Part shown: one piece after another, positions 3,981 to 25,221 of the stretch | Layout: each line of letters opens with the position of its first letter | Numbering within the stretch: the first letter of the stretch is position 1 | NCBI GenBank assembly: GCA_021927905.1 | Contig: BLLK01000058.1 | Location: forward strand, 310,001-374,000 | Length of the DNA: 64,000 nt | Direction of reading: 5' to 3' | Source: Chaetoceros tenuissimus | Lineage: Eukaryota; Bacillariophyta; Thalassiosirophyceae; Chaetocerotales; Chaetocerotaceae | Program-made: the position numbers and the translations under genes | The notes under the pieces: generated by a model | What the model was told of the DNA's origin: nothing | What the model saw: the letters and a program-made list of their open reading frames with translations, nothing else | Database searches by the model: none

Positions 3981-6900
3981 ATGGGCAATGAGGATGACGA
4001 GAACAATATTTGGACAAATCCATGCACTCAGTTTGTATCGAATCGAATTCTTCTGAGCTTTCCAAAGCTATCATCTGGTGCTAAATTTGACAAGGCTTTC
4101 AAAACAGAGTCAAATGGGTAAGTTTTCTTTTCTCTATTTAGCTGTTCTTTTCAATCCTCTTTCTAATCGATTGGTTTGTTAGAGAAATTCTCGGCAAGTT
4201 CTTCACAGAAAAGGAGTTGAGATGTGTTTTGATACCAGACAACCTCAAGATAGTAGAGAGTATGCCTAGTAGACTCCCTCGAAATAAATGCTTAGTGTTG
4301 CTCAAGACTGTGGATGTTCTTGACGGTAGTAATGTTCATCAATCGATTTTATCTACTGAGCTTGGAGGAAGAAATCCATTCGATCAATTGGAGCTTGTAT
4401 CCAAGTCGGTATTACTTCCAATCTTGAGTAATCCCCAGAATGAGCAGAGTTGGGGTGAAGTAACGTACAGAGAGATCAATGAAAGCTTTCATTCATTTCT
4501 TTCTTCAACATCAATCCTATGTGCTCAAGTGAAGGGACAGACAAAATTACCGATGCCTCCAATCGAATCAGTCGATGGTACGGTCATTCAACAGAATCCT
4601 ATCCCTTTGTTGGAGTCTGTAATTTTGACTTGGACGAGACAAATTAAAGGAATTCTCAAGCAGGATCCTGAAGCTATGCTCAAGAGTGGATTGCATCCTT
4701 GTCCAGATGTTGAGATTAAATTCTGGAAAAAGAAGGCCGAAAGTCTCAACGCTGTATTTGACCAACTTCAAGGGAAAGAGATTGGAAGAGTGTTGAGGAC
4801 ATTGGATAAATCCAAATCTACTTATTGTGCGTCTTTTGCAGAACTTTGCAAAGAAGTTTACGAAGCAAGACTTGAAGCAAATAGTAATGTCAAGTTTCTC
4901 AGTACCCTCGAAAAGTTGTTTGAAAAACTCATCAATGGCGATGACATTTTGAAGTTGAAGGAGTTGTTTCGTCCCATCCTCTTCACCATACTCATGATCT
5001 GGAAGAATTCTGAATACTACAACACACCGTCTAGGATTGTGGTTTTGTTCAATCAGATTTGCAATGCACTGATTGAACAATCATGCCGCTACATCTCAGG
5101 GAACAAATCTTCAACTTTATTGAAAACGAGGAAGCTAATGAAGCATTGAAGCATCTCGAGACAATCATGGCTGTGTGTAGTAAATTCAAGGTCGACTATT
5201 TTGACTTTAAGCAAAAGACTGCTGTTGATTGTCCAGCGAATCCGTGGAAAATTCAAAATAATGCTATATTTCTACGTTTAGATACTTTCTTGGAGAGATG
5301 TCACGATATATTTGATTTGACTGAGACCATCATTCAGTTTACAAAGCTCGCCAAGATTGAGATTGGGTCTACAAAAGGAAACCCATTAACAAAGTCTGTG
5401 CATCGTATCCACAATGATTTTGAGATTAGAGTTGAAATCATGAAGAATGTCGACTATGATCTCATGGACGTGACGAAAGAGGAGTTTGATGATTTGTACC
5501 AGGACTTTCGTCATGCGGTCAAGGAACTAGAGAGGAGATTGGGATCACTCATTAGCATCGGTCTTGAAGATTGCTCCACCATTTATGGCAAATTTCAACT
5601 TTTGGACTCATTTGACAAGAAGCTCCTCAACCGCCTCATAATCAAGGATGAGCTAGAGAGCAAACATATAGATCTTCTACAAGCATATCATCAAGATCTC
5701 AAATTGGTGGAACAGCTGTTCATATCCAATCGTAATAATCCACCAATGGAATTGAATAAAAATCTTCCGCCAGTATCAGCGTCACTATCATGGTGTAGAT
5801 CTCTTATTCAAAGAATCAATGTTCCAATGACAAAGCTGACCCAACTGGATCGAAGCATCTTGAATCGAGAAGAGGCTAAAGAAGTTATGAAGATGCAAAA
5901 GTCATTACTGGAACTCTTGGAAGACTACGAAAAACAGCAGTCTTTGGAGTGGAGTTCAAGCATCCACGCAAGTTCAGAGGAAAAACTGAATTTGAACTTG
6001 CTCAGTCGCAACCCAGAGACGAGGCATCTCAAGACCAACTTTGACCCAGAACTTATATGCCTATTGAGAGAAGTCAAGTATTTCCTTTTATTGGGTATTG
6101 ATGTACCCCAGAATGCTCTCAATATTTACCAGTCATCAGAAAAGTTTCGACGTTGGACTGGAACTCTTGATCTGATTGTAAATAAGAACAACACCGTTCT
6201 TCAACAACTACTACCTGTTGAAAAGCCTCTTGTTGCACCCTACCTAGCGAAATTTGATGCCATAATCCAGAAGGGGATTGATACTCTCAATTGGTGTTCT
6301 GAAGGTGTTGATGATTTCATTACCAATGCTATGGAACAAGTAGATATTGTCTATGGCATTCTTAAGACAATGAAAGACAACATGTCCTCGATTGAATCAG
6401 TATTGTCCAAGTGGAATACTCCCATGATAGAACGCAAAGCAAAGCCAGTTGAGAAGGATGAATTTGAGCGCATGACGAGATTGGTCAAAAACAGTAGGTT
6501 TGCTGAGCTGAAGGACTCGAGCAAGATGATTTCAAATTCACTGAAAGAAACTAATAAGGTACTTCGAGTTTCAAATGCATCCAAAGATTGGAAGTCTTAC
6601 CTCAACTTTGTCAGTGGTCACATTATCCATGGCTTGTCAACATCCATCATTACATCCCTACATTTTTTACATGAGCAGATTGATTATGAAAACATTCGTA
6701 AAGAAGGAAAGTTACCACTGATTGAAATCAAGCTCGACCTTTGCGGTAAAGAGAAGGTGCTTGGCTTTACTCCAATGATTGGGACTTCAATTGATGGGAG
6801 AGGATTACGGTCCATGATGGATGAAATGGTCGGGTCATTTTTGCAACAAGGTGTACTTTGTAAGAGAATTGATGGGGATGGCAATTACGTCCGTGAAATG

Positions 6901-9900
6901 CATGCAGATATAGAAATCAGTAACTACATTGCAGCCATTACTTTTGCAATGATGGAAACGGAAGAAAAGTGCATGGATTTGAAACAAATGTTTGAGACCC
7001 ATTCCTTTCTCTGGAACTTGGACTTGACTGAATATTTTGGTAACTTTTGCAAGGAAGCAACCATCACCACTGAAAATGGAAGTGTCTTACTCGATCTTGA
7101 CAAGTTTGATGAAGAGATGAAGAAGTTTACCAAGATTCAAGACGTTGTTTCCAAATACCCTTCACCAGTCGACCTTGGGTGGATCCGGGTGGATGTGAAT
7201 CCAGCAAAGCAAGAGATATCCATGTTTGTCACAAAATGGATTAGCACATTTACTCAGCATATTCTCCAATCTGTCATTACAACCCTTTCTAGTCTCCAAG
7301 ATTTCATGGACAATGTAAGTCAGGGGCTCGATGTGGACGTTATTGTGAACAGTAATGACAATCAAAGTTTGTTGGCGGTAATGGCCGTGATCCGCGATGT
7401 TCGCAGAAAGGTAGACTACTTCAAAGATACCTATGAGCCACAGAATGATTGTCTCAACCTACTAAAGCAATATGGAGTTGAATTTCTTCACGAAAAGATT
7501 CATGGTATAAGTCTACAGGACTTTTTAGAAGAATTGCCAGTTGCGTGGGAAGGAATGGTGAAAAAAACCTTGAAGAAAAAGGAAGAAATTCTCCCGATGC
7601 AAATGGATTCTGTTGATGCCCTCAAGAATGACTTGGATGAATTTTATCTCTCAATCCGAGCTTTTCGTGGTGACTTCCGAGCAAATGCTCCTTTCAAGTT
7701 TGATGGGAAAATATCTGAGGCTTACAGTATCATGGACAATTATGCTCTTCAACTAGATGACTTTGAATCGAAAATTAAAAAATTTCATGAATTTGAAGAC
7801 TTGTTTGAGCTTCAACAGTCCTCTTATCCAGAGATTGGGGAAACTCGAGTTGAAATCAAGCAACTGAAGAACCTTTGGGACTTCAAGGGTATGATCAACA
7901 TGATTTATTCTGACTGGAAAACTACATCTTGGAGTGAAGTTGACACTGATGATTTGGAAGATCAAAACAAGAAGCTCCGAAAGCAATTGAAGGAACGTGG
8001 AAACGTGTTTCAAGCTGTCAAAGGCTGGCAGATTTACCGAGATATTGAAGGAATGATCACAATCATGGGTGTTGCTCTTCCTCTTGTAGCTGACTTGAGA
8101 TCTGATGCAATGCGAAAGCGTCATTGGGCATCACTAGCTCATGTCTGTAATGTCAAGCTTGTTGATCCTAGTGATAAGGGTTTCACTCTCAACCATATGA
8201 TGGCAATTAATTTGCACTTGCAAAAGGACGCTATTGAAGAAATTGTTGAGACTGCAATGAAAGAACTCAAGATTGAAAAGAAGCTGAAGGAGATTGAGCA
8301 GGTCTGGTCTGACATGGAATTGGCTTATGCTCCTCACAAAGATACTGAAATGTATGTGCCAAAGCCATCTGAAGAGGTTGTTGAAGCCATCGAAGGGCAT
8401 CAGATGGAACTACAAGGTATCTTTGGAATGGGCAAATTTATGGAGTACTTCAAAGAGAGGGTGATTCACTGGCAGACCCAACTTAGAATTGTTGATGACA
8501 CACTAAGAATGTGGATGGTTGTTTCGAAGTCTTGGGCTGGACTGGAATCAATCTTTTTAGCTTCTGCTGACATTCGTTCTCAACTTCCCGAGGATACGAA
8601 ACGCTTTGAGGGAATTGACTCTGATTTCAAGGAGCTCATGAAGGATGCTGTAAATGAAAGTAACGTTGTAAATGTTTGCTCCGTGGAAGGTCGTTTTGAA
8701 GCATTGGTCAGTATGCGTACAAGGTTAGAACTGTGCCAAAAGTCTCTCAATGAGTATCTAGATATCAAGAAGAAGATTTTCCCACGTTTCTACTTTGTTT
8801 CATCGGTTGCTTTGCTGGACATGCTTGCAAATGGTACCAATCCTCCAAAGATCATGCCATACCTTGGAGATTGCTATGATGCATTGGCTGATCTTCGTTT
8901 CATCAAGGATGAGCAAGGCAATGAAAGTTGCAAGACTGTCGACCAAATGATTGCAAAGGATGGAGAGCGAGTGCCTTTGAGTGAACCTTTTACCATGGAA
9001 GGAGAGGTTGAGAACTACCTCAATAATCTTACAGAAGCGATGCAGACATCTCTCAAAGTCATTCTAGAAGATGCTGTCGAAAAAGCTGCTGCTTGGGAAA
9101 TAGAAACACCTAGACATGAATGGCTTTTCAATTATCCTGCACAATTATGTATTACTGGAACTCAAATCTACTGGACTGATGAGACACAATTAGCTCTGGA
9201 AGAATTTGAAGGTGGACAAGAAGATGCAGTCAAGAGATACCTTCAGCTGTGTAACAATCGTTTGTCAGCACTGATTGAACTCGTTCTGGGAGAACTCACA
9301 GCAGAGGATAGAACAAAGATCATTTCATTAATCACCATGGATGTTCATTCTCGTGATGTTGTTGATAAATTGATTCAACAAAAGATTGAGGGTCCTTCCG
9401 CGTTTGCATGGCAACAGCAACTCCGGTTTGAATGGGAGCCTACAACAAAAGATGTCAATGTGAAAATTTGCGATTTCGATTGTAAATATTTTTATGAATG
9501 GGTAGGAAACACTGGCAGGCTAGTCATCACACCACTTACAGATCGTTGTTACATTACACTTACAATGGGATTGAAACTATTCCTTGGAGGTGCTCCCGCA
9601 GGACCTGCAGGTACTGGTAAAACTGAAACCACAAAAGATCTAGCCAGAGCACTTGCGATTCCATGTTATGTCTTTAATTGTTCTGATCAAATGAATTTCC
9701 AATCCATGGCGGATATTTTCCGTGGACTTGCGCAAACTGGTGCATGGGGTTGTTTTGATGAATTTAACAGAATTCCAATTGAAGTTTTGTCTGTTGTTGC
9801 AACTCAAGTAAAGACAATTCAAGATGCTATCGTCAAATTCTCGAATCCAGAAAATAGAGAAGAGCCCTACCGCAAGTTCCCAGCTGGTACACCACCAGTA

Positions 9901-12900
9901 AAGGTTGGTGAATTTGACTTTATGGGTGACACTATTTCTCTTATTCCAACTTGCGGATTCTGGATCACAATGAATCCAGGTTATGCTGGGCGTACAGAAT
10001 TACCAGAAAATCTTAAAGCACTCTTTAGATCATGTGCCATGATTCGTCCCGATATGAAGTTGATTCAAGAAAATATGTTAATGGCGGAGGGATTTCAAAC
10101 AGCAAGAGCTCTATCAGTGAAATTCAATACATTGTACGAGTTGTCCTCTGCTCTATTATCAAAGCAACCTCATTATGATTGGGGTCTTCGAGCAGTCAAG
10201 TCTGTTTTGCGTGTGGCAGGTGCAATGAAACGAGCAAACCCAGATTTGGACGAAGCTCAAGTTCTGATGCGTGCATTGCGTGATTTTAATACTCCAAAGA
10301 TTCCAAATCACGATATTCCGATCTTTCTCCGTCTCATCAATGACTTATTCATGGGCTTGAAAGTTGATGCGAAAGTTGACCAAACGCTGAAGGAAAAAAT
10401 TATCCGCGTATCGAAGGAACAGGGATTGCAACATGATGAAATGTTTATTAACAAGACCTGCAACTTTCAAGAGCTATTGGACGTGAGACATTCTGTCATG
10501 TTGTTAGGACCTGCAGGCTGTGCTAAAACAACTATTTGGAAGACTCTTCAAGCTGTCCACAATCTTGATAAATCAAAGCCTGTGTGTGTTTCTGAAACAG
10601 TCAATCCGAAAGCAGTGACAGGGGATGAACTTTATGGTTATATGACTCTTGCCAAAGATTGGAAGGATGGAGTTCTCAGTATAATTATGAGAGGGATGAG
10701 CAAAAATTTTGCAGAACAAGGATTTCATGACTATCAGACTCACAAGTGGGTGGTTTTGGATGGAGATATTGATGCAGTTTGGATTGAATCCATGAACACT
10801 GTGATGGATGACAACAAGGTCTTGACTCTTGTTTCCAATGAACGTGTTCCTCTCTCACCTGCCATGAGAATGGTATTTGAGATCAATTCTCTCAAGAACG
10901 CCACGCCTGCAACGGTATCAAGAGCAGGAATTCTGTACATCAATGAAACTGACATCGGATGGAGACCTTTCGTGGAGACTTGGGTACAAAATCGAACCAG
11001 TGCTACCGAAAAGAACTTTCTTCCTTCCTTGTTTGAGCGTTATATTGATTCTCTCGTGGAGATGACACGTAGAGGATACAAGGAGGTGACTAGCATCCGT
11101 CTCATCAACAAAGTCAGTACTATTATTTATCTCTTGGAGGGTCTGCTACCATTGATTCCTGAAGAGAAGGCAACCTCTGAAATTATTGAAATGACTTTTG
11201 CCTTTTGTGCCATGTGGGCTTTTGGTGGTCCAATGATTATTGATAAATCTGGTGACTATAGAAAAAAGTTCTCGGAGGAGTTTACATCAACATTTGGAAC
11301 CAAATTTCCGAAGGAGGGACTTTGCTTCGATTACTTCTTGGATCCAGTTCAGGGAGAATTTATACATTGGAACACGAAGGTGCCTACCTATTCACCTGTA
11401 CCGATTGGAATCAATCCTGGAGAAACCCCTTTCAACTCGATGTTTGTTGAGACTGTGGAAACAACAAGAATGTCTTACTTACTTGATCGCCTTGTTCGAA
11501 ATGGCAAGTATGCTATGTTTGTCGGTAATGCAGGAACAGGAAAAACTGAAATAATTAAGAACTACCTCAATGGACTTGACAAAGACGTTGACAATATTCT
11601 CAGCAAGAATGTAGTTATGTCATACTATACTTCTTCCTACAGTTTGCAGCAAGAACTTGAGGGTTACATTGACAAACGATCTGGATCATTGTATGGACCA
11701 CCAATGGGAAAGAAAATGGTCTTCTTTATTGATGATATGAATCTTCCTTATGTTGAAACATATGGTACTCAGAACGCGATTGCTCTTTTGACACAACACA
11801 TGCAATATGGATCCATCTTTGATCGGGGTGATTTGGGAATTCGGAAGCACTTGAAGGACATTCAATACGTTGCGGCAATGAATCCAACTGCAGGATCCTT
11901 TGAAATTTGTGATCGATGTCAACGACATTTTGCCACGTTTGCACTTGCAATGCCATCATCTAGTGACTTGAACACCATATTTTCAAGTTTATTCGGAGGG
12001 CATTTGAAGAGCTTCCAACCTGCGTTGCAAGATTTGAGCGGCAAGATTGTAGAGTCAGCAATTCAGATTCATGAGAGTGTCAGTACTCGCTTTTTGCCAT
12101 CAGCAGTCAAATTCATGTATAATTGGAACATGAGAGAATTAACCAACATTTTCCAAGGTTTGTGTCATGCTAAATCCGAGTACTACATTAAACCCGCTAT
12201 GCTTGCGCGTCTGTTTGTTCACGAGGCACAAAGAGTATACTCGGACAGACTAGTCACAGAAGAAGAAATCACAGTCTTTGATGGTCTCTTCAAGGATGTT
12301 TTGAAGAAAAATATTTCCAATATTTCATGTGAAGAACTGTTGGAAGCACCATTGGTATACACTAATTTTGTTTCGAGCACTGACAATAGCTATCTTCCAA
12401 TTCCATCAATGGATAGACTAAAGGTCGTGTTGGAAGGGAAATTGAATGAGTACAACGAGAGCAATGCCATGATGGACTTGGTTCTGTTTGAACAGGCAAT
12501 GCTACATGTGACAAGAATCAACAGGATCATCCAAAACCCTGGTGGTAATGCTATGCTTATTGGAGTTGGAGGATCTGGAAAACAAAGTCTTTGTAGACTA
12601 GCAGCTTTTATTGGTGATTATGAGACCAAGCAACTTGCAATTACTTCCAATTTCAAGGTAGACGACTTGAAGGAAGAATTGAAGGCCATGTATATTGCAA
12701 GTGGTGTCAAGGGAGTCCAAACTGTATTCTTAATAACAGACTCTCAAATTGTTCGTGAAGAGTTCTTAGTTTACATCAACAGTATGCTGACAAGTGGTTG
12801 GATTCCTGACTTATTCCCAAAAGAAGATATGGACAATATTCTGGGATCAATTTCAAATGATGCAAGAGCAGAGGGTATTCCAGACACTCCAGAGGCCCGA

Positions 12901-15900
12901 ACTGCGTACTTTATTTCAAGAGTCAAAAAGAATTTGCATCTCGCATTAGCATTCTCTCCTGTAGGGGATACATTCAGGATCCGAGCAAGAAGATTTCCAG
13001 GACTTGTCAACTGCACAGGGATTGATCAATTCCATCCTTGGCCACGAGATGCCTTGGTCAGCGTTGCGGAACGCTTCATCTCTGACATTGAGCTTCCTGG
13101 TCCTGATGATATTAGATCATCTCTTGCGAACCACATGGCAGAAGAGCATCTTAGTGTAGCAAGAATGTCTCAATACTACCTCGAGACACAGCGCAGATAC
13201 AACTATGTGACTCCAAAATCTTTCTTGGAGCTTATTTCGTTCTTCAAGTATTTGCTGACAGAAAAACGAAGTGATGTGCAGAGGCTAATTGATCGTCTTG
13301 ATGTTGGATTATCAACATTGAAAAAGACCTCTGATGATGTCTCTGAATTGCAAAAGGATATCAAGATTACTATGGAAAAGGTTGAAGAGAAAAAAGTTGC
13401 TACTGATGTTCTCATCAATGAAATGAAGATGCAGCAAGCTGACGCCCAAGTTCAAGACGATGCAGCAAAGATTGAAGCAGAGAAGGCCAACGAAGAGTCT
13501 TCAAAGGCTATGGCGATCGAGAAGGAAGCAGAGCAAGAGTTAAGTGAAGCTGAGCCAGCGATGAAAGCTGCTGCAGCAGCTGTTGACTGTTTAAGTAAAT
13601 CCATGCTTACCGAGTTGAAAGGTCTGTCCAAACCCCCTTCTGGTGTCGATAAAGTCACCAATGCTTGTTTGATTTTGATTGAAAAAGAGTATAGTGCGAA
13701 AAAACAGACTTGGTCAAGAGCAAAGACCATGATGCAAAATGTGGATGCTTTCAAAAACAAGTTATCAGAATTCAAAGGGGAAAGCATCACTGATCAAGAA
13801 ATTGGACTCCTGCAAAAATATGTGGAAGACGCGAACTTTTCTCCTGAGAAGATGATTTCAAAGTCAGCTGCAGCTGCAAATCTTTGTACTTGGGTGGTGA
13901 ATATTTACAATTATAATAGAATCTATGTGAAAGTGAAACCTTTGATGGACTCTCTGACAGCTGCAAGAGAAAGAAAAGAAGCTGCTCTTTCTAGTTTAGC
14001 AGCCGCGGAGAAAAAAGTCGCAGACGTTCAAGCTCATCTAAAGACATTGGAAGAAAAGTACAACGAAGCAATGGCCGAGAAGGAAGAAGTAGAGGAACAG
14101 GCACGAAAACTAATGGAAAGAGCCGATCTAGCTCAGAGACTTGTAGGAGGTTTGGCCAGTGAGAATGTTCGTTGGGGCAAAGAGATTGAAAAGCTACGCG
14201 AAAAGGCGTTATCGCTATCTGGTGATTGTATGCTTGCAGCTGGTTTCGTGTCTTATGTCGGTGCTTTTGACCAAGAACTTCGAGAAGAATTATGGAAGGT
14301 TCAGTGGACTAATGATTTGAAGTCAAGAAATGTTCCAATGACTGAAAACTCTGATCCCCTTGACCTCTTGACTGATGCGAGTAAAACTGCGACAATGATT
14401 ACCGAAGGGCTTCCAAGTGATCGAGTATCTATTGAAAACGGGTCTGTTGTGATGAATTGCAAACGTTGGCCACTTATCATTGACCCCCAAGCACAGGGAA
14501 TCAAATGGCTCAAACAAAAGGAAGAGGGTAATGTAGACATTGTCCAACTAAGTCAGAAAAATTGGATTAAAGTCATTGAGAATGCTATTGTCAATGGACG
14601 ATGCGTAATCATTGAGAACCTTGGGTCTGAAATAGATGCAACCTTGGACCCAGTTTTATCGAGAGCTATTTATAAAAAAGGACGTAGTCTGTACATAAAG
14701 TTTGCTGGAGAAGAAATTGAATACGATCCAGCATTCCAATTATACCTGCAGACGAAGCTAAGTAATCCTCATTACAAACCAGAGATTGCAGCACAATGTA
14801 CAATCATCAACTTTATTGCAACGGAAAGGGGCCTCGAAGATCAACTTCTAGCAAAGGTTGTCGAAATGGAAAGAAGCGACCTAGAAGAAAAGTCTAGAGA
14901 GTTGACTAGTGCAGCAACACAGTACCAGATGCAGCTTGTACAATTGGAAGATGATTTACTGGAAAGATTGGCAAATGCACCCGATGACATTTTGAGCGAT
15001 GTTCCTCTCATCGAAGGACTTGAAGCCACCAAAAAGACCTCCAAAGAAATTGCTGAAGCTGTGGAAAAAGGAGAAATTACAAAGGCAGAAGTGGAAAAAG
15101 CTCGTGAAGCGTACAGACCTCAAGCTGCAGAAGGCGCAATGCTTTATTTCATCCTCACAAAGCTCTGCGCTATTGACCACATGTATCAATATTCTCTTGA
15201 CAGTTTCAATACTTTTTTCGAAAAATCTGTCAATCGTGCATTAAAGGATGAGAATCTCAACACAAGAGTAGAAAATCTTCGAGAGTCTTTGCGAATGACA
15301 ATCTTCACTTGGGTCTCTCGGGGTCTCTTTGAAAGACATAAACTCATGTTCTTGGCTCAAGTAACATTTAGTTTGATGCAACGGGGGATTATTGGTGAGG
15401 GACAATGGATTGAAGAGCAATTCCAATTTCTCACTAGAATCCCAAGTAAGCAGGTGGAAGAAAATAAACTCGATTGGCTTCCTGATAGTGCTTGGGCTGC
15501 AATATGTGCACTCGGTGATCATGACGACTTCAATAAGCTTCCAAGTGATCTCTTAGAGGCTGCACCTCGTTTCCGAGAGTGGTTCAACTCTGTATCTCCT
15601 GAAAACGAGAAACTTCCTTTGGATTGGGCAGGATTAGATAGAACTCCGTTCCAAAAGATGTTGGTTGTTCGAAGTTTGAGACCAGATAGAATGATTTCGG
15701 CTCTGAATGGTTTTATTCGAGAGACTCTTCCAAATGGATCCTCCTATGTTGACTGTGATTCGACTCTAAATAGTCTAGAGATTCTTGAACAATGCTTATT
15801 GGATTCGACTCCAACAACTCCAATATATTTCATTCTGAGTCCAGGTGCCAACGTTGTTGCTGACTTGGATGTAATGGCAACAAAATATGGATTTCAAAAG

Positions 15901-17601
15901 GGAATTTCATATCACAATGTTAGTATGGGACAGGGGCAAGATGTTGTCGCCATGTCATGGTTGGAGACAGCTCATCGCAATGGCCATTGGGTTATCCTCA
16001 ATAATGTTCATCTCATGCCGAAATGGTTAGTTGAATTAGAGAAGAAACTCGATGAGTATGCTGCTGAAGGTAGTCACTCAAAGTTCCGAGTATTTTTGAC
16101 AAGTGATCCATCTACTACCATTCCAATAGGAATATTGAGCCGTTGTATCAAAATAACCAATGAACCACCAACAGGGTTGAAAGCCAACCTAAAGAGAGCC
16201 TGGTGCTTCTTTTCAAAAGACTACATTGAAGAATCAGACTCCAAAACGAAAAGTATTCTGTTTGGTCTGTGTCATTTCCATTCCATAATGATGGAACGTA
16301 AGACCTTTGGACCACTTGGTTTCAATATGAAATACCCTTTTAGCATTGGTGACTTGCGAGATTCTGCAAAATGTCTTCAGAATTACATGGATAACTCGGG
16401 GGGTGGAAAAATTCCTTGGGATGATCTCAAATACATCTTTGGTGAAATTATGTATGGAGGTCACATTGTGAATGACTTTGACCGTCTCCTGGCCAATGAA
16501 TACCTGAACTTTTTCATGAAGGAAGAGTTACTCGACGAGATGGAAATGTACCCATTTGCCGAAGATGAAAAGGGGATTTCTTTTATGAGCCCGACTCCAA
16601 CTACTTTTGAGAAGTACATTGATCACATCGACACAAAGATGGTATCAGACACCCCAATAGCCTTTGGTTTACACCCAAATGCAGAAATAGAGTTTAGAAC
16701 TCAGCAGAGTAATGAAGTCTTTGAAATGTTATTGGAACTTCAGCCAAAAGGCGCAGCTACAAGTGGAGAAGGATCTTCTCCTCTGAATATCGCCGAAAGT
16801 GTGTCTGCAGATCTTTTGGAAAAGCTAGGGGAAAAGGCTTTTGACACTGAGGACATTATCAAAAACCTAGATGAGCAAGGTCCATATCAAAATGTATTTT
16901 TGCAAGAAATGGATGTAATGAACGTCTTGCTCGCTGAAATAAAACGATCAATCAAAGAACTTCAACTTGGCTTTGCAGGTGAACTTACAATGAGTGATGC
17001 GATGGAAAATCTAATGGATTCCTTTGTCATGGATCGAGTACCAGAATCATGGGCCAAGATTGCATGGCCATCCAAGAGGGGTCTTGCATCTTGGGTCCTC
17101 AACTTACAGGAGCGATTAGCACAGCTCGAGGAGTGGTCAAACAATCCTGGAGAGCTGCCAAAGGTTACAGATCTCAGTCTTCTGATCAATCCTAGCAGTT
17201 TCTTAACTGCAATCTGTCAAGTAACTGCTCAACGAAATTCTTGGGAACTTGACAAGTTGGTTACCTTTAGCGAGCCAACAAGAAAGATGCGTCCTGAAGA
17301 AATTGACTCTCACAGTCGTGATGGATGTTACGTTACTGGACTTCATCTGCAAGGAGCAAGGTGGGATACGAATAGTGGCGTACTCGAGCCTTCTCTACCA
17401 AAAGAAATGTTTTGTCCAATGCCGATTATCAATATCAAGGCTGTTTCTACTGAAAAAGCCAACATTGGAGGGATATACAAATGTCCATGTTATAGGACCC
17501 AGGATCGAGGACCAACTTACATTTTTTCTTCCCATCTCAAAACAAAGTCACCCCCTTCACGATGGAGATTAGCTGGTGTTGCTTTGTTATGTGAAGTTTA
17601 A
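3981..17601 (+). CDS. Axonemal dynein heavy chain, outer-arm type
   Basis: About 4,520 residues, normal for an outer-arm heavy chain. Exon 1 is 3981-4117 and a 65-nt intron ends at 4182. The long downstream exon changes reading frame once between about 5083 and 5149. The tail (DHC_N1, N2) is followed by the AAA ring: P1 GPAGTGKT at 9601-9624, P2 GPAGCAKT at 10507-10530, P3 GNAGTGKT at 11524-11547, P4 GVGGSGKQ at 12562-12585. A coiled-coil stalk and microtubule-binding tip span about 13283-14130, then AAA5, AAA6 and the C-terminal domain, which ends WRLAGVALLCEV. The protein is the ATP-driven motor of ciliary beating. The context around P1 (GGAPAGPAGTGKTETTKDL) resembles beta-class outer-arm chains, but the subclass is not certain. 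P2 has alanine where Walker A normally has glycine before lysine. The frame change falls inside conserved tail sequence and has no slippery heptamer, so a one-base assembly error is the simplest explanation. A flagellar motor fits a centric diatom with motile sperm. Confidence 0.93.
4118..4182 (+). other. Intron 1 of the dynein heavy chain
   Basis: GTAAGT donor at 4118 and TTAG acceptor at 4181-4182. Splicing joins AFKTESN, a glycine split across the junction and EILGKFF in one frame. Its 65 nt is typical of other introns in the window. Confidence 0.8.
17563..17601 (+). repeat. Dynein-tail repeat, left copy (functional gene end)
   Basis: 39 bp encoding WRLAGVALLCEV and the stop of the dynein gene. 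A near-identical copy at 20768-20806 (2 mismatches) and a synonymously diverged copy at 22104-22142 encode the same 12 residues. Directly after the stop starts the duplicated element body, so this copy acts as the left boundary of the inserted block. Confidence 0.9.
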
Positions 17602-17693
17602 TTATTTAAAACAAGAAGAAAGAAGAATCTAAGACCAAATAGTTTCATTAGAAGTTAGTTCCCTTTTCTTTGTAATATTTTTCAATACTATAT

Positions 17694-18098
17694 TCAACAC
17701 CAGCCAAAGTCAAGCGGATAGTCCCTTCGCCTTTGATTTTTTTTTTCCAGAAAATAGCGCAATGAGTTCGATGTTGTTTCTTTGTATTCCTTTCCAAAAT
17801 CGCTCTGAAGAACCAGGCTCTGTGGGAGGCCTTCCAATACAATTTGATTAGTATCAATCTTTGTAACTCTAAAGTGATATACTGCTATCGCTTTTCTCAT
17901 AGCAATACGTTCCTCTGGTGTCTTTTTTCTACGACGTTTAGCTGCATTTCTCATGGCAATACGTTCTTCTGATGTCTTTTTTCTACGTTTATGTTTAGCA
18001 AGTCTTTGCTCTAGTGACATCTTACCCCGGCGACTTTTAGCGGCATTACTCATGGCAAGACGAGTCTCTGGCGACTTTTTGCGACTCTCTTCTGACAT
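17694..18098 (-). CDS. Small basic protein with NUMOD3-like repeats
   Basis: 134-residue ORF. Residues about 5-70 are four imperfect, highly basic repeats of the form KKxxEERxAMxxAAKRRR. Spacing and composition resemble NUMOD3, a modular DNA-binding motif found beside homing-nuclease domains; no nuclease domain is seen. The rest (VYHFRVTKID to the end) is unrecognised. Its ATG overlaps the stop of the preceding ORF as TGATG, so it may be translated by termination-reinitiation, or be joined by an unrecognised splice. It is duplicated with no change at 20899-21303. The DNA-binding role is an inference from the repeats only. Confidence 0.5.
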   Translation of the reverse strand: MSEESRKKSPETRLAMSNAAKSRRGKMSLEQRLAKHKRRKKTSEERIAMRNAAKRRRKKTPEERIAMRKAIAVYHFRVTKIDTNQIVLEGLPQSLVLQSDFGKEYKETTSNSLRYFLEKKNQRRRDYPLDFGWC

Positions 18099-20615
18099 CA
18101 GCCTCCAAATCGTCTCTTTTGCCCCACACTAATTCTTCTTCTCACTTCTTCCCTTTGAGCTTCAGTGAAAAGTGTCATTGACAATGCATCAAGGATCATG
18201 TACACGGCTAATCTATAATGCTCCACATCGAAATCTTCTGAACAAAAGTTACGATCCACACAAAGTAGGAACCTCTCGTAGACTATATCTGCTGTGATTC
18301 CATCATCCAACATACCTCCAGCATCCAATAATGCCGCAGCAACCTCGAGAGGCTGCTTCCACTGAATATTTAAACCGCGAGAAAGTTTCATTGCGGTGGC
18401 ATGAGGCATTTTCTTTCTAAGAATATCTTTATCCGCCTCAATTTGGATCATTTCCTCTCTTCCCAGAAGCTCCATGTGTTGTTTGGATCGGTGATCAATG
18501 TCGGCTTTGGAAAATGTGAGTATCAGAAACTTTGTACATGACAAGGAAAAGGAAATGTTCTTACCAATAACGTCAAGACCTAGTTTGTCAATGGTCAATT
18601 GTATCATTTCCATCTGAGTCTCTTCGGCAACTATTGCAAGACGTTTGTGCTTTTCAATTAAATCATCAAGGATTTGCTTATCTTTGTTATTCAACTTTGG
18701 TCGAAACTTTTTGATATTGGTGACACACTTATTCTCTTTATGAATTGGATCCTGATTTCGAATGATTGTGGTGAGCCTTTTCTTGGTATCCGTCATGCGC
18801 AAATTGTGTGGGATATTTGATAATTTCTCCCCATAAAACTCCACCCCCTGCTGAGTAGTCTTGGATTCATGACTCTTGTTTGTGTCTGGAAATGAATATC
18901 CAAGAACGACTGTCTCCTTGGCACCTAACTGGCCGGTGGGTGGAGATGTAATGACTCCATGCTTCATGTATGTTCCAAGGGCTAAAGCAACGGCTCCAGT
19001 AAGTTGCAACATTTCATTTGTGATGGAATTCTTCTCGGCCAAGCCTTCGAAAAGTTCCTTCATATGCTTTGGCACCTTCAGACCGGCCAAGTCCTCAGTA
19101 CATTTATCTTTTCGCTCTTCCGGTGATAAATCAATGTCTTTGTTGGCTTCACTCCTTAAAGAGCCCCGACATTCCTGCAAATAATAGTCAGAAGTTTTTT
19201 CAATGTGGTCATGAGTTCTCTTCTCACCAGTACTAGGTGCTTCTGGCTCGTCTTCAATCAACAAGTTATCAATGACTCCCATGTTTTCGCTATTCTCAAC
19301 CCTTTCGGCCTCGAGCTCTTCACGCAAAGCTTCGATCTCTTCATTAGTAGCATCGAGCTCTTCGTATGCAGCTTTGATCTCTTCATACGCAACATCAAGC
19401 TCTTCATTCGCAACAGCATCGAGCTCTTCGTAAGCAGCTTCGATCTCTTCATACGCAACATCAAGCTCTTCATTCGCAACATCGATCTTTCTGAGAAGTT
19501 TCTTAACTTCTGACTCATGACTACGAGTGACGGATTTCATTTGGTTTTCATGCTCAGTCTCCAGCTCTTTGCGCACTTTGGATTCATAGTTGTCTTTGGT
19601 CCAAAACAATATTTCCTCGAGCTCCTTTATTTCTGATTTGAATTTTTTCTTATTCTCGTCTAGCATAGCTTTGCTCTCCTTTTTGCTATCCTCAAGGGCT
19701 TGGGTCAAATTGCTATTCTCCTAACTTGCTCTGACACAGCATTGGCTTGTTTCAACTTGGTTTCGAGAGAATTGATTTTCTTCTCTTTTATCTCCCTTGT
19801 TTCGTTACTCAAACGAACAAATGTAGACATATCGGAGTTTTTAGCATTGATGGCTTTCTTCAAAGATACTATTTTACTGTGGAACAAAAAGAATTGAGAA
19901 GAAAGATACAGTTGAATCCATGCAAAGCTTTAGGAACTTACAGACAGTCATTTTCATTGATTTGAACTTCAGGTTCTGAAACGGCCTCTTTTTGAATTTT
20001 GTCAAGCGTAGCCTTGTGCTCCTTGCACCTTTTTCTATATTTCTTCAATCTCTTAGCGACATCCATGGAGATAACTAGACTTTCGATTGATTCATCACGG
20101 CTGATGTTGTCGAATTCATCGATTTTGTTCGCAACAGGAAGACGTTGTTTAGACTCTAGCTCTTTTACTCTTTTCTTCAGCTTTTCATTTTCTTCGAGTA
20201 GAGAGTTGTTCGAGTTGGAAGAAGTGCTCGATACAGTTGATGGAGAGGATACATATGGCACCAAATTCGAAGAGCCATGATGCTCTGCAATGTAATCCTT
20301 CAATGCTGAGATTTGAAATCCAATTGGATTATGGATCCGGCCTTGGCAATTCTTTACTCTGTCATGAATGACTAAGGTAGATTTTAGACTTATTGAACAA
20401 AGACATTGGACTTTAAAGGAAAAGTGAAAAGACTTACACTGTAGAGCTTTCAACAATGCTGATGGTATTGATACAATGCATTCGACTCTGTTTCTGAAGT
20501 TAACATGTCGAGAAAGATGAACAAGAAGATTAATGATTTCAAAGTCAGGCGACTGCTGTTCTGTAGTAAGTTGAGCAAGGCACCTGGATAGAAACAAAAG
20601 AACATCACTGTTCAT
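18098..20615 (-). CDS. Spliced coiled-coil protein gene of the element
   Basis: Minus-strand gene of unknown family. Supported introns are about 20372-20437, 19877-19941 and 18505-18564, all with good GTAAG donors; the last is 60 nt, in frame and open. The order is a short helical region (LLVHLSRHVNFRNRVECIV), a Ser-rich linker, then long coiled coils (about 20160 to 19210) containing tandem repeats of AYEELDA/AYEEIEA. A globular C-terminal domain follows, ending with QKRRFGG. The frame changes near 19.7 kb without a clear intron, so the gene may be damaged or misassembled there. The 5' end is uncertain: the first ATG at 20615 sits in a pyrimidine-rich stretch ending CCAG that looks like an acceptor, suggesting a missing upstream exon. 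No enzymatic motif was found. Confidence 0.5.
19310..19490 (-). repeat. Internal coiled-coil tandem repeat
   Basis: Imperfect repeats of about 20 residues (EELDVAYEEIEAAYEELDA type) in the coiled-coil gene, visible in DNA as recurring GAGCTCTTC and GATCTCTTC blocks. They probably lengthen a rod-like segment. Confidence 0.75.
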
Positions 20616-20740
20616 TCTGATTCAACAATAGTGAAACAGTGACTCTTTTCGAAATAGGGCAGCATCTTCTTGAGTGCATTTTTGAAAAATCAAATTTTTG
20701 TAGAAATCTATCGAAAAGTTAAGGAGAAAAAATGGTACAA

Positions 20741-20806
20741 CTGAAAACAAAGGGAAACCCTTCTCGTTGGAGATTAGCAGGTGTTGCTTTGTTATGCGAA
20801 GTTTAA
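20741..20806 (+). repeat. Second dynein-tail fragment between the two units
   Basis: Encodes LKTKGNPSRWRLAGVALLCEV plus stop, matching LKTKSPPSRWRLAGVALLCEV at the end of the neighbouring dynein gene but with several base changes. Homology fades upstream of about 20732 and an in-frame stop lies just before. It is thus a severed end of a dynein gene, either a diverged copy of this one or one from a paralogue. After its stop, the element body resumes without any difference from the first copy for 979 bp. Confidence 0.85.
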
Positions 20807-20898
20807 TTATTTAAAACAAGAAGAAAGAAGAATCTAAGACCAAATAGTTTCATTAGAAGTTAGTTCCCTTTTCTTTGTAATATTTTTCAATACTATAT

Positions 20899-21303
20899 TC
20901 AACACCAGCCAAAGTCAAGCGGATAGTCCCTTCGCCTTTGATTTTTTTTTTCCAGAAAATAGCGCAATGAGTTCGATGTTGTTTCTTTGTATTCCTTTCC
21001 AAAATCGCTCTGAAGAACCAGGCTCTGTGGGAGGCCTTCCAATACAATTTGATTAGTATCAATCTTTGTAACTCTAAAGTGATATACTGCTATCGCTTTT
21101 CTCATAGCAATACGTTCCTCTGGTGTCTTTTTTCTACGACGTTTAGCTGCATTTCTCATGGCAATACGTTCTTCTGATGTCTTTTTTCTACGTTTATGTT
21201 TAGCAAGTCTTTGCTCTAGTGACATCTTACCCCGGCGACTTTTAGCGGCATTACTCATGGCAAGACGAGTCTCTGGCGACTTTTTGCGACTCTCTTCTGA
21301 CAT
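20899..21303 (-). CDS. Second copy of the NUMOD3-like basic ORF
   Basis: Same 134-residue product, base for base, as the ORF at 17694-18098, including the TGATG overlap with the upstream frame. Lack of any change implies a very recent duplication or gene conversion. Its upstream partner gene is truncated, so whether it is still expressed is doubtful. Confidence 0.45.
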   Translation of the reverse strand: MSEESRKKSPETRLAMSNAAKSRRGKMSLEQRLAKHKRRKKTSEERIAMRNAAKRRRKKTPEERIAMRKAIAVYHFRVTKIDTNQIVLEGLPQSLVLQSDFGKEYKETTSNSLRYFLEKKNQRRRDYPLDFGWC

Positions 21304-22103
21304 CAGCCTCCAAATCGTCTCTTTTGCCCCACACTAATTCTTCTTCTCACTTCTTCCCTTTGAGCTTCAGTGAAAAGTGTCATTGACAATGCATCAAGGA
21401 TCATGTACACGGCTAATCTATAATGCTCCACATCGAAATCTTCTGAACAAAAGTTACGATCCACACAAAGTAGGAACCTCTCGTAGACTATATCTGCTGT
21501 GATTCCATCATCCAACATACCTCCAGCATCCAATAATGCCGCAGCAACCTCGAGAGGCTGCTTCCACTGAATATTTAAACCGCGAGAAAGTTTCATTGCG
21601 GTGGCATGAGGCATTTTCTTTCTAAGAATATCTTTATCCGCCTCAATTTGGATCATTTCCTCTCTTCCCAGAAGCTCCATGTGTTGTTTGGATCGGTGAT
21701 CAATGTCGGCTTTGGAAAATGTGAGTATCAGAAACTTTGTACATGACAAGGAAAAGGAAATGTTCTTACCAATAACGTCAAGACCAAGTTTGTCAATGGT
21801 CAAATGTATCATTTCCATCTGAGTCTCTTCAGCAACTACTGCAAGTCGTTTGTGCTTTTCAATTAAATCATCAAGGATTTGCTTATCTTTTTTATTCAAC
21901 TTTGGTCGAAAAATGTTGATATTGGTGACACAATTATGCTCTTTATGAATTGGATCCTGATCTCGAATGATTATGGTAAGCCTTTTCTTGGTATCCGTCA
22001 TGCGCAAATTGTGTGGGATATTTGATAATTTCTCGCCATAAAACTCTACCGCCTGCTGAGTAGTCTTGGACTCATGACTCTCGTTTGTGTCTGGAAATGA
22101 ATA
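21303..22103 (-). pseudogene. Truncated second copy of the coiled-coil gene
   Basis: Corresponds to the last part of the 18098-20615 gene, with the same 60-nt intron at 21710-21769. It ends abruptly at the third dynein tail, so the coiled coil and N-terminal region are missing. From 21786 to 22104 it differs from copy 1 at about 19 of 316 positions, roughly half changing the protein, while everything between 20807 and 21785 is unchanged. Confidence 0.75.
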
Positions 22104-22142
22104 TGGAGATTAGCAGGTGTAGCTCTGCTGTGTGAAGTTTAA
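22104..22142 (+). repeat. Third dynein-tail copy, right boundary
   Basis: Encodes WRLAGVALLCEV plus stop with different synonymous codons from the other two copies. It is followed by sequence that is not shared with the element. It may be the displaced original end of the dynein gene, or a piece of another dynein gene. Confidence 0.85.
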
Positions 22143-22301
22143 AGAGTCACTTATTATACTACACAACTTCAGTAACTATATTATTGGACTCGATTCAAAT
22201 TTGTATTAAGATAGTTCTTCTTTACTAAATTTAAAAGGTATTTACGTTGAAACAAAGTCTATTGTACATGTCATTGCCTGCTTTCAAGGGCAATGCTGAG
22301 T

Positions 22302-22718
22302 TCAAGGAGAAACAAATCTAGCATTTGTTGAAATACTTGTGGAAATAAACCTCTTTTTATTCATACTAGACGTAGACGTTGGGTCATTTCCAGACCCCGA
22401 AGTCTCGTCAGTATATGAAGAACGCTTTCTTTTCGCTTGGAGTCTGAAAGGTAGAACCGCATGTATCCTAGAGGTTGTAAAATCATCAAGACTAGGAAAG
22501 AGCAGATCATTATTACGGGCCAAGTCCTCATCTTCTTCAATAGGTGCAAAAGATGAAGACCCAAGCCATGCTCCTCGCCGTTTTAACTTTGGTGGTGATG
22601 AAGGTTCTCCAAGGCACTGAATGGGAGTGTTTGGGACTACAGCTTGATGACATCCAAGAAACTCGTCGAAAGATGGTGCAGAACTTATTGATGGATAGGA
22701 ATAGCTTTTGACATTCAT
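22302..22718 (-). CDS. Small Ser-rich hypothetical protein
   Basis: 138-residue ORF starting at a normal ATG. It is rich in S, P, R and K, with basic patches (KLKRRG, QAKRKRSS) that could be nuclear-import signals, and no recognised domain. It lies 160 bp from the right boundary of the inserted block, so its expression might be affected. It may be a chance ORF in low-complexity sequence. Confidence 0.4.
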   Translation of the reverse strand: MNVKSYSYPSISSAPSFDEFLGCHQAVVPNTPIQCLGEPSSPPKLKRRGAWLGSSSFAPIEEDEDLARNNDLLFPSLDDFTTSRIHAVLPFRLQAKRKRSSYTDETSGSGNDPTSTSSMNKKRFISTSISTNARFVSP

Positions 22719-23471
22719 GTTGGAAGGTGATGGTCTTTTGGAAAAATACTGCTTTGAAAAATATATGAGCTTCTTTGCAACATCACAGGATCATTGTGGT
22801 GTATTGAGATATACAGGTGAGAAGGCCACAGAGGTGAGAAGGGGTGAGAAGATGTCAGGTGAGAAGGGTTCTCGGGTTCTCCACTTCCATTTTCCTTGAC
22901 CAGTGAGTCTTGTTAATTCCAAGATACAGATTCAATCTACGGGGCCTGTAGAAACTTACACACGAATAGCGTCACTGTTACTTTCTTCACCTTCGCACAA
23001 CAGTTTTGTCATTATTCAATGCCTATGTACTATGTACTACTCGTATTACAGTAATGTTCATCTTTTAGGGCTTCCCACCATTCCCAACCCAACCTCTCAC
23101 CACAAGCAGACTTCGCATCTCACTTTTTTTGTGTAGGAAGCTTCACTAAGTACGATTGCCAATCGTGTGAATTTACCTGAAATATAACTGCCAGATCTGT
23201 TCAACATGTTTGTAAACATGGATGGACGACGAGAAGAAGATATGAAGTTGGAAGTTGAGTATTGAATGTACTCGTACTACATACAATAATGCTTCTTCCT
23301 GAGAGCTTTGTGGTGATAGATGCAAATAATAAAATAGAAAAAGAATAGTGTTGAATGTAATGTACATATCTTATTCTCATTTTTTATACTGGATACATTA
23401 TAAAATCCCTTCCGCTCAAGTCCAGTAAAAGTAAACAAAAAACATAGCATAAAGCAATTTTCTCCACAAAG
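22719..23471. other. Intergenic with short GGTGAGAAG repeats
   Basis: No supported gene. Between about 22816 and 22867 the nonamer GGTGAGAAG occurs four times at irregular spacing. The rest probably holds the promoter of the zinc protein downstream. Confidence 0.5.
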
Positions 23472-24128: not shown

Positions 24129-24354
24129 GCGTGAAGTGTTGAAAATTGGTTGTGGTCACAATCCATCAAAAATTCCGTCCTGGGATCGATTGCATTCTTA
24201 AATTACCACGGTACGGTCGCAATCCATCAACATAAATAGACAATAACTTCAAGTTACATTGTATTTCTAGCAAAACTTTGTACTTCATGCATTATTCAGA
24301 ACTCAACTGTTTCGACTTGCAAATCTCCTCCTATTTTACTCGTAAAGCAGACCA
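24129..24354. other. Spacer with a short direct repeat
   Basis: The motif CAATCCATCAA occurs twice (near 24161 and 24218) within similar flanking bases. No gene is seen. Confidence 0.4.
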
Positions 24355-25221
24355 ATGCTATTTATTTATGTTTTAAAGCTGAAAAACAATAATTTCTTTG
24401 TTGGGACAACCAATTCTATGACCCATACAATGCACACACACATGAATGGGACCGCCTCAGCTTGGACAAAACTCCACAAACCACTGCTTCTTGTGAAACA
24501 AGTGGAGTGCATACGTGGCTTGAATCCAACTCTTCAAGAAGATTTGTATGTAAAACAACTCATGCTAGACCATGGCTTTGATAAAGTAAGAGGAGGATCA
24601 TATCTAGGAGTAGAGCTGACTACACTAGAAAAAACCTCTTTATCAAAAGAGATCTGGTTCGCTGATCGTTGCTGCTGCAAGTGTGGTCGTCGCAGCCATG
24701 TAACTGAAAACTGTACTGCGATTGTTGATATTCATGGTAATGAAATTGTTACTACCATACAAAAAACGACAGATGATAGTTGCGAGACTTCTAAAGACAT
24801 TTGGGACGAGTATAATACAGTTGCCAGAGCAATGCTAGAATCCGATCAGGTTGACAAAAGGATCAAGGATTGTATTAACGCGACACAAAATGTAATCGAA
24901 ATATCGCAGAGTAAAGCAACCAAGTTTAAACTTGAAACTGATCAGCACTTTCGTAAACCGAGTATTGTAACCCCAACCGCTACAAATAGTACTTCAATCG
25001 GAGATACAGATACAAGAAGTAGTGATAACGATTCGTCATCTGACATTTCTTCTGTCAGAACTATTGATGCATCCAACGACAATGTTCGAGGAATTTTCCG
25101 TCGCATTGGAGATACAAAGGTAAACAGTCCATGTGCTCGTTGTGGCAGAATAAGCCATCACAGATCCAATTGTTATGAGCGTTTTGATATTCATGGATTT
25201 GACATCAGTGACTGTTTTTGA
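24355..25221 (+). CDS. GIY-YIG-like protein with two CCHC zinc knuckles
   Basis: 288 residues. The N-terminal 90 residues match a GIY-YIG-like fold: IYVLKL, then FFVGT for the second motif, HMNGTASAWTKLHKP, and a C-terminal HGFDKVRGGSY helix-turn. The usual helix arginine before HxxG is not obvious and the second motif tyrosine is F, so nuclease activity is doubtful. Two zinc knuckles of the exact CX2CX4HX4C pattern follow: C107, C110, H115, C120 and C260, C263, H268, C273. Each is followed by a DIHG motif, so the knuckle-DIHG module is duplicated, separated by a charged, Ser/Thr-rich linker. A role in nucleic-acid binding is likely, the target unknown. Similar GIY-YIG domains with a VRGGSY ending occur in large DNA viruses and algae; transfer is possible but unproven. 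Confidence 0.75.
   Translation: MLFIYVLKLKNNNFFVGTTNSMTHTMHTHMNGTASAWTKLHKPLLLVKQVECIRGLNPTLQEDLYVKQLMLDHGFDKVRGGSYLGVELTTLEKTSLSKEIWFADRCCCKCGRRSHVTENCTAIVDIHGNEIVTTIQKTTDDSCETSKDIWDEYNTVARAMLESDQVDKRIKDCINATQNVIEISQSKATKFKLETDQHFRKPSIVTPTATNSTSIGDTDTRSSDNDSSSDISSVRTIDASNDNVRGIFRRIGDTKVNSPCARCGRISHHRSNCYERFDIHGFDISDCF

What the first reader, a model, noticed from the sequence alone, without database searches (positions are those of the whole stretch)
17563..22142. A tandem element that sits exactly at, and re-supplies, the conserved 3' end of a dynein gene
Three copies of the codons for WRLAGVALLCEV-stop bracket and separate two head-to-tail copies of a 3.2-kb unit. The left copy completes the intact dynein gene; element sequence starts at the base after its stop codon. 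The middle copy is the last 22 codons of a dynein end (LKTKGNPSRWRLAGVALLCEV, stop included), and the right copy has yet other synonymous codons. The simplest reading is an element that enters the most conserved end of dynein heavy-chain genes and carries a replacement tail, so the host gene survives. That logic is known for islands in tRNA genes and for site-specific retroelements; I know of no case at dynein C-termini. The mechanism is inference.
Basis: partly seen in the sequence, partly recalled or inferred. Interest (0 to 1): 0.85.

Follow-up and report, generated by a model that had tools for sequence, protein, structure and literature searches.

The report
Gene-tail-swapping element beside diatom dynein
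In the diatom Chaetoceros tenuissimus, an unknown gene sits back to back with the end of a sperm-flagellum motor gene and carries spare copies of that gene's last codons, much like yeast WHO elements that swap in a new gene ending each time they insert; if real, this is that kind of element far outside yeast, and probably of separate origin.

Summary
The window (Chaetoceros tenuissimus) has three WRLAGVALLCEV-stop copies, at 17563, 20768 and 22104, with synonymous differences only. They separate a full and a 5'-truncated copy of an antisense orphan gene (E); the second unit is 1.3 kb, not 3.2 kb. A fourth dynein tail with a complete E lies on contig C18, with a piece of the window's next gene. 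E remains lie at an unlinked outer-arm dynein gene (C32), again with a duplicated gene end, and on C27 behind a copy of an armadillo-repeat gene's 3' end. At these host ends E's stop lies 46-50 bp beyond the host's stop (31 on C18), convergent. A 98% identical dynein from elsewhere differs in 5 of the last 23 residues but 74 of 4143 others. This is the anatomy of WHO elements, yeast homing elements that replace the 3' end of FBA1. No nuclease domain was recognised in E, so it resembles WHO in anatomy but is not a member by protein; cleavage and mobility are unproven. The assembly was haplotype-merged, so the tandem block needs reads.

The parts
5077..17601 (+). host gene: flagellar outer-arm dynein beta-type heavy chain (open frame to stop; 5' end not determined)
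   Evidence: Pfam dynein domains; best PDB sequence matches are outer-arm dynein beta heavy chains
17530..17601 (+). tail L: last 23 codons plus stop, the stretch inferred to have been replaced
   Evidence: 5 of 23 residues differ from homologue P0003 versus 74 of 4143 elsewhere
17648..20621 (-). E1: antisense orphan gene facing dynein; stop 17648-17650; frame broken relative to the C18 copy
   Evidence: ORFs; 92% DNA match to C18; alignment
17593..18580 (.). 988-bp tract identical in E1 and E2 (second copy 20798-21785)
20738..20806 (+). tail M: displaced dynein end, 22 codons plus stop
20807..22103 (-). E2: 5'-truncated E copy, cut where tail R begins; stop 20853-20855
22104..22142 (+). tail R: displaced dynein end (12 codons plus stop), probably the oldest (inferred)
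22263..22318 (.). 56 bp (downstream region and end of the next, convergent ORF) that also closes the E unit on C18
   Evidence: 96% over 56 bp, E 3.7e-20
22302..22790 (-). ORF (gene X), inferred native convergent neighbour of dynein before E insertion
   Evidence: ORF ends ...RFVSP-stop; a C18 ORF ends ...GFVSP-stop in the matching 56 bp

Best explanation
E is the gene of a WHO-like, gene-end-replacing homing element. The mobile unit is a variant host 3' end followed by an antisense E. A break near codon 4152 of an unoccupied dynein allele would be repaired from an occupied allele, so the incoming tail becomes the gene's new end and the old tail is pushed downstream behind E. Repetition gives dynein-L-E1-M-E2(truncated)-R-neighbour, newest first. 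Units sometimes land elsewhere with their host fragment (C18, C27). Shown: the anatomy as assembled, extra host-end copies for two unlinked dynein genes and one armadillo gene, coding-type divergence of the tails, and a locally divergent dynein end. Inferred: that E (or a partner) makes the break, allele specificity, repair from the homologue, and the order of events.
For: Nested tails and E copies. C18 carries dynein tail, E and the end of gene X. The C27 E lies behind an armadillo-gene 3' end whose full copy is on C34. At gamma-type dynein on C32 the host end is duplicated (score 43, maximum of 300 shuffles 30) beside E remnants. Host stop to E stop is 46 bp (window), 50 (C27), 48 (C32) and 31 (C18). 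Four tails need at least 9 changes with 1 nonsynonymous, P=2e-4 under neutrality. The armadillo fragment is also synonymous-rich, P=9e-4. L-C18 tail synonymous divergence (4 of about 9 sites) exceeds that of E (26 of 312), P=0.006. The dynein end is divergent from P0003 (Fisher 5.6e-5); among 22 close homologue pairs this pair stands out (tail 19%, upstream 1%). Tail copies start 69 (M), 44 (C18) and 39 (R) bases before the end of the stop codon. The three dynein genes found all match outer-arm types best; flagella occur only in male gametes of centric diatoms (PMC5654045, abstract start seen), like the WHO host gene needed for spores (PMC7282813). P values are not corrected for the number of things looked at.
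Against: No nuclease, integrase or transposase domain reached significance in E (Pfam; PDB sequences; PHROGs, where the basic repeat region of E1 has one chance-level hit to a family named homing endonuclease, E 0.35). The AlphaFold model is unusable (pLDDT 42). E1 is frameshifted relative to C18; only C18 has an unbroken annotated model (950 aa). C54 looks like a disrupted gene and C14's E stop is about 755 bp from the next ORF's stop, so 2 of the 6 loci with an E C-terminus are not docked at a native gene end. The third dynein gene has no E. Tails are short, so statistics are thin. The C32 E end is weak alone (DNA 30 vs maximum 29 of 500 shuffles; protein 36 vs maximum 32 of 100). In one search, 7 other pairs also have a tail slightly above upstream (at most 14% vs 5%). 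One genome, one close homologue of unnamed source, and a haplotype-merged assembly.
Confidence: 0.58

Rival explanations
1. Ordinary ectopic or segmental duplication: E is a host gene family living next to gene 3' ends, and duplications or unequal exchange between diverged haplotypes copied E with scraps of its neighbours. No endonuclease and no tail replacement.
For: C18 looks like one copied intergenic block with ends of both neighbours. E is weakly constrained between C18 and E1 (pN/pS 0.54). Heterozygosity of the strain is estimated at 1.56% (PMC8613185).
Against: E meets three different host gene ends in the same orientation at 46-50 bp. Three fragment ends fall within the last 70 bp of dynein. 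Tail synonymous divergence exceeds E divergence. Local divergence of the dynein end.
Confidence: 0.22
2. Assembly artefact: the tandem block in the window joins two haplotypes or collapses a repeat.
For: MaSuRCA hybrid assembly followed by HaploMerger2 (PMC8613185); 988 bp of perfect identity between E1 and E2.
Against: Both odd junctions lie outside the perfect repeat and carry no N runs. C18, C27 and C32 show tail-E junctions or gene-end copies at other loci.
Confidence: 0.12
3. Site-specific integration by an integrase-type recombinase, as recalled for prophage e14 in E. coli icd, where the element supplies a new gene end and the old end is left on the far side.
For: The same old-end/new-end logic; all four tails share the core TGGAGATTAGC.
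Against: No integrase domain in E. M homology extends about 30 bp upstream of that core. Different host ends at C27 and C32.
Confidence: 0.08

Closest known systems
WHO elements of Torulaspora and Lachancea yeasts at FBA1 (Coughlan et al. 2020, PMC7282813)
   Same: Gene beside, not inside, the host gene; host 3' end replaced; tandem clusters with displaced 3' fragments and decayed older copies; some element genes antisense to the host; transposed copies carrying host fragments; host gene needed in the sexual phase.
   Different: Host is dynein (and apparently an armadillo gene), not aldolase. The protein is an orphan with no recognised LAGLIDADG/intein or other nuclease domain. Tails are 39-72 bp at dynein, far shorter than the FBA1 3' part analysed there (bases 669-1083). 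No cleavage has been shown here.
Synthetic cleave-and-rescue / home-and-rescue drives (search listings only)
   Same: A recoded copy of the target gene travels with the drive.
   Different: Engineered with CRISPR; here the nuclease is unproven.
Prophage e14 / phage 21 in E. coli icd (recalled, nothing read)
   Same: The insert supplies an alternative 3' end and the old end remains beyond it.
   Different: Integrase-driven prophage; no integrase found here.

Membership tests
WHO element | element gene immediately downstream of the host gene, not inside it | tested here: met
   E stop 46 bp after dynein stop, antisense; transcription not tested
WHO element | duplicated host 3' fragments between element copies | tested here: met
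   tails M and R, as assembled
WHO element | 3' part of the host gene much more divergent than the rest | tested here: met
   5 of 23 vs 74 of 4143 residues, protein level, one homologue; control
WHO element | older copies decayed, newest next to the host gene | tested here: met
   E1 longer than E2, though E1 is itself frameshifted; relative age is inferred
WHO element | transposed copies carry a host-gene fragment | tested here: met
   C18 and C27 carry one; none recognised at C54 and C48; C14 and C19 not searched for one
WHO element | HO/VDE-like LAGLIDADG endonuclease plus zinc finger | tested here: not met
   no significant hit in E; no Hom_end PF05204 match at E 1 in a six-frame search of the genome
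WHO element | host gene FBA1 | tested here: not met
   host is a dynein heavy chain
WHO element | allele-specific cleavage of the host gene; strain polymorphism | not testable with these tools
   needs biochemistry and strain sequences
NUMOD3-type homing endonuclease | NUMOD3 motif or HNH/GIY-YIG domain in E | tested here: not met
   none in E; NUMOD3 occurs in other ORFs, e.g. near the C48 remnant
non-LTR retrotransposition of E | intron-free copies with 3' poly(A) | tested here: not met
   bases spliced out in gene model P0001 are present in E1, E2 and C18, but model P0002 reads them as coding, so the intron is only predicted; no poly(A)/(T) at the tail junctions
integrase-type element (e14-like) | encodes an integrase | tested here: not met
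   no such domain in E

The most novel reading that the evidence does not exclude
A natural cleave-and-rescue drive in a diatom, of origin separate from WHO: an orphan DNA-cutting protein targets the 3' ends of outer-arm dynein genes (needed for sperm flagella, so in the sexual phase) and of other genes, and each unit carries a synonymously recoded, cleavage-resistant end of its host gene.
Probability: 0.4. Interest if true: 0.87.

Novelty: new variant of a known kind. Interest (0 to 1): 0.74.

Why it matters
[quoted passage not shown] The same anatomy in a stramenopile with a different protein would show that replacing a gene's end is a general selfish strategy that evolved more than once. 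It would also supply a candidate new DNA-cutting protein and explain why a conserved motor gene has a fast-changing end. It is directly testable with public reads and strains.

Tried and rejected
Retroposition of E is disfavoured because predicted intron sequence is kept in the copies. A simple tandem duplication is rejected as the whole story: L and M differ by 11 of 69 bases yet the next 979 bp are identical, so a later conversion or mixed origins are needed. E as a known nuclease was not supported by Pfam, PHROGs or PDB sequence searches. AlphaFold gave pLDDT 42, so no fold search was run. Protein searches with words from both halves of E found only the two copies of this genome (in one search only the 7994 best candidates were scored). 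Gene-end duplications were looked for across E at C54, C27, C48 and C18 and not found there; the C27 armadillo fragment came from a later genome search. The end of the C54 ORF is unique in the genome. An e14/icd paper search gave nothing relevant; that precedent is recalled. Plasmid search: no match. The first version of the homologue-pair control crashed after its other results and was rerun. C48 and C19 show no E C-terminus.

The C18 left junction is uncertain: the bases ACAAAG before it also match dynein in register (alignment), so the fragment may start about 63 bases before the end of the stop instead of 44.
Full report
WHAT IS THERE. The window is G000:C44:310001-374000 of a 41.03-Mb, 68-contig assembly. 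It is Chaetoceros tenuissimus: the protein of an E copy is named so in public sets, and the assembly size matches the published 41 Mb (PMC8613185, search listing and passages seen). The left gene is an outer-arm dynein beta-type heavy chain, open to its stop at 17601. Right after it come an antisense gene E (stop 17648-17650), tail M (20738-20806), a truncated E (to 22103), tail R (22104-22142), and then a convergent ORF X (22302-22790). The three tail copies are real and not chance. The genome has one other copy of the motif at up to 1 mismatch, on C18.

THE TAILS ARE CODING ENDS. Four tails (L, M, R, C18) need at least 9 changes, of which 1 is nonsynonymous; random mutation would make 73% nonsynonymous (P=2e-4). 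They therefore diverged as working gene ends, not as scraps decaying in place. Synonymous divergence of the L and C18 tails (4 of about 9 sites) is above that of the attached E genes (26 of 312; P=0.006). C18 E against E2 looks neutral (pS 0.062, pN 0.059), and C18 E against E1 mildly constrained (pS 0.083, pN 0.045). In the 318 bp beyond the identical tract, E1 has 7 private differences, E2 12 and C18 5, with 294 positions shared. E1 and E2 thus look like separate older copies made identical over 988 bp; gene conversion is my inference.

THE DYNEIN END IS LOCALLY DIVERGENT. P0003, the closest homologue found (source unnamed, so species or strain unknown), is 98.1% identical over 4166 aligned residues. 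It differs at 5 of the last 23 residues and 74 of 4143 elsewhere (Fisher 5.6e-5); no other 23-residue window holds as many differences. Of 121 dyneins compared (the window's plus the 120 listed of 1375 hits), 118 had a usable tail. They give 22 pairs with at most 10% upstream divergence. The window-P0003 pair has a 21-residue tail at 19% against 1% upstream; 7 of the other 21 pairs have a tail slightly above upstream, the strongest 14% against 5%. The divergence starts at codon 4152-4153, where tail M also starts. The last two or three residues vary across species in general, which tempers this.

THE SAME LAYOUT ELSEWHERE. C18: dynein tail, then E (950 aa in public annotation, P0001), then 56 bp equal to the end of gene X at 96%, placed just after the stop of an ORF that I read by eye as a cyclase (two of its ORFs gave no Pfam hit). 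This reads as a unit copied from an occupied dynein locus. C32: outer-arm gamma-type dynein, whose end is duplicated 123 bp downstream (27 of 29 bases plus one gap; score 43 against a shuffle maximum of 30), with a strong E remnant at L017 4528-4642 (score 136) and a weak E C-terminus before the duplicate. C27: E (173 aa, 5'-truncated) preceded by 160 bp at 85.6% and 63 bp at 79% of the 3' end of an armadillo-repeat gene (best PDB matches Vac8-like and designed armadillo proteins), including its stop. The full gene is on C34, where no E search gave a hit. The armadillo fragment also differs with a synonymous excess (19 synonymous against 17 differences in changed codons; P=9e-4). Distance from host stop to E stop: window 46, C27 50, C32 48, C18 31 bp (coordinates).

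COUNTS, WITH THE MISSES. E relatives were found at 8 places: window, C18, C27, C32, C54, C14, C48 and a weak one on C19; the tool calls such counts lower bounds. Six keep an E C-terminus. Four of these are docked at a native host gene end or a copy of one (window, C18, C27, C32). C54 lies 29 bp after the stop of one long ORF and before another that holds fibronectin-type-III domains, probably a disrupted gene. C14 is about 755 bp from the next ORF's stop. Of the three dynein genes found, all with outer-arm best matches, two have E; the third (C27:50442) has none.

MECHANISM. The nearest known system is the WHO element of yeasts (PMC7282813; abstract, the first tenth of the text, and the sections on clusters, cleavage site, repeated homing, phylogeny and discussion seen). 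There a homing endonuclease gene lies downstream of FBA1; homing is proposed to replace the gene's 3' end with a resistant version; old ends are pushed rightwards as fragments; older genes decay; strays carry FBA1 and other gene fragments; and two alleles are 99% identical upstream and 85% downstream of the cut. Nearly every anatomical point recurs here. The authors suggest FBA1 was chosen because it is needed for spore formation. Flagella in centric diatoms occur only in male gametes (PMC5654045, abstract start and passages seen), so a flagellar dynein fits the same logic. That last step is inference.

WHAT IS MISSING. E has no significant match to a nuclease (the one PHROG hit named homing endonuclease has E 0.35). 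No HO/VDE-type Hom_end domain was found in the genome, and the predicted structure is unusable. The right-hand homology, 69 and 39 bp, is short for homologous repair; end joining on that side is possible. The assembly used MaSuRCA and HaploMerger2, which I recall can misplace haplotype segments, so the tandem block itself needs reads; C18, C27 and C32 do not depend on it. P values are uncorrected for the many comparisons made.

LITERATURE. The search WHO elements/FBA1/homing found 1 paper. The search homing endonuclease/Torulaspora/HO endonuclease/Lachancea since 2020 found 3: the source, its commentary and one on phages. The searches homing genetic element/dynein/diatom (241 papers with at least 2 terms, 10 listed) and homing endonuclease/diatom/nuclear genome (25 papers, 10 listed) listed no case like this. 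Subscription journals are mostly not held, so absence from print is not shown.

VERDICT.

Noticed in passing
C27:466360 onward (L014 5360-9901) and C27:51400 onward (L026 2460-3948): Tandem repeats of about 1190 bp beside the C27 E copy; similar sequence follows the third dynein gene and looks 5S-rDNA-like by eye (not tested).
   Followed up: no
L016 2781-3515 (C48): A 244-aa ORF with NUMOD3 motifs (Pfam 5e-10), about 0.9 kb from the C48 E remnant; NUMOD3 also on C46 and C50.
   Followed up: partly
L016 4040-4390 and L052 3934-4221: Cysteine-rich coding sequence, similar by eye, lies next to the E remnants on both C48 and C14; possible former domain partner of E.
   Followed up: no
window 24346-25221: ORF with gag-like CCHC zinc finger (PF14787, 6.7e-7).
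   Followed up: no
window 19307-19501: A 21-bp-period coding repeat (Glu-rich, coiled-coil-like) inside E1, shorter on C18: length-variable region of E.
   Followed up: no
L013 5423-5944 (C18): The E C-terminal domain is duplicated within the C18 gene (258 bp at 89% DNA identity), single in C27.
   Followed up: partly
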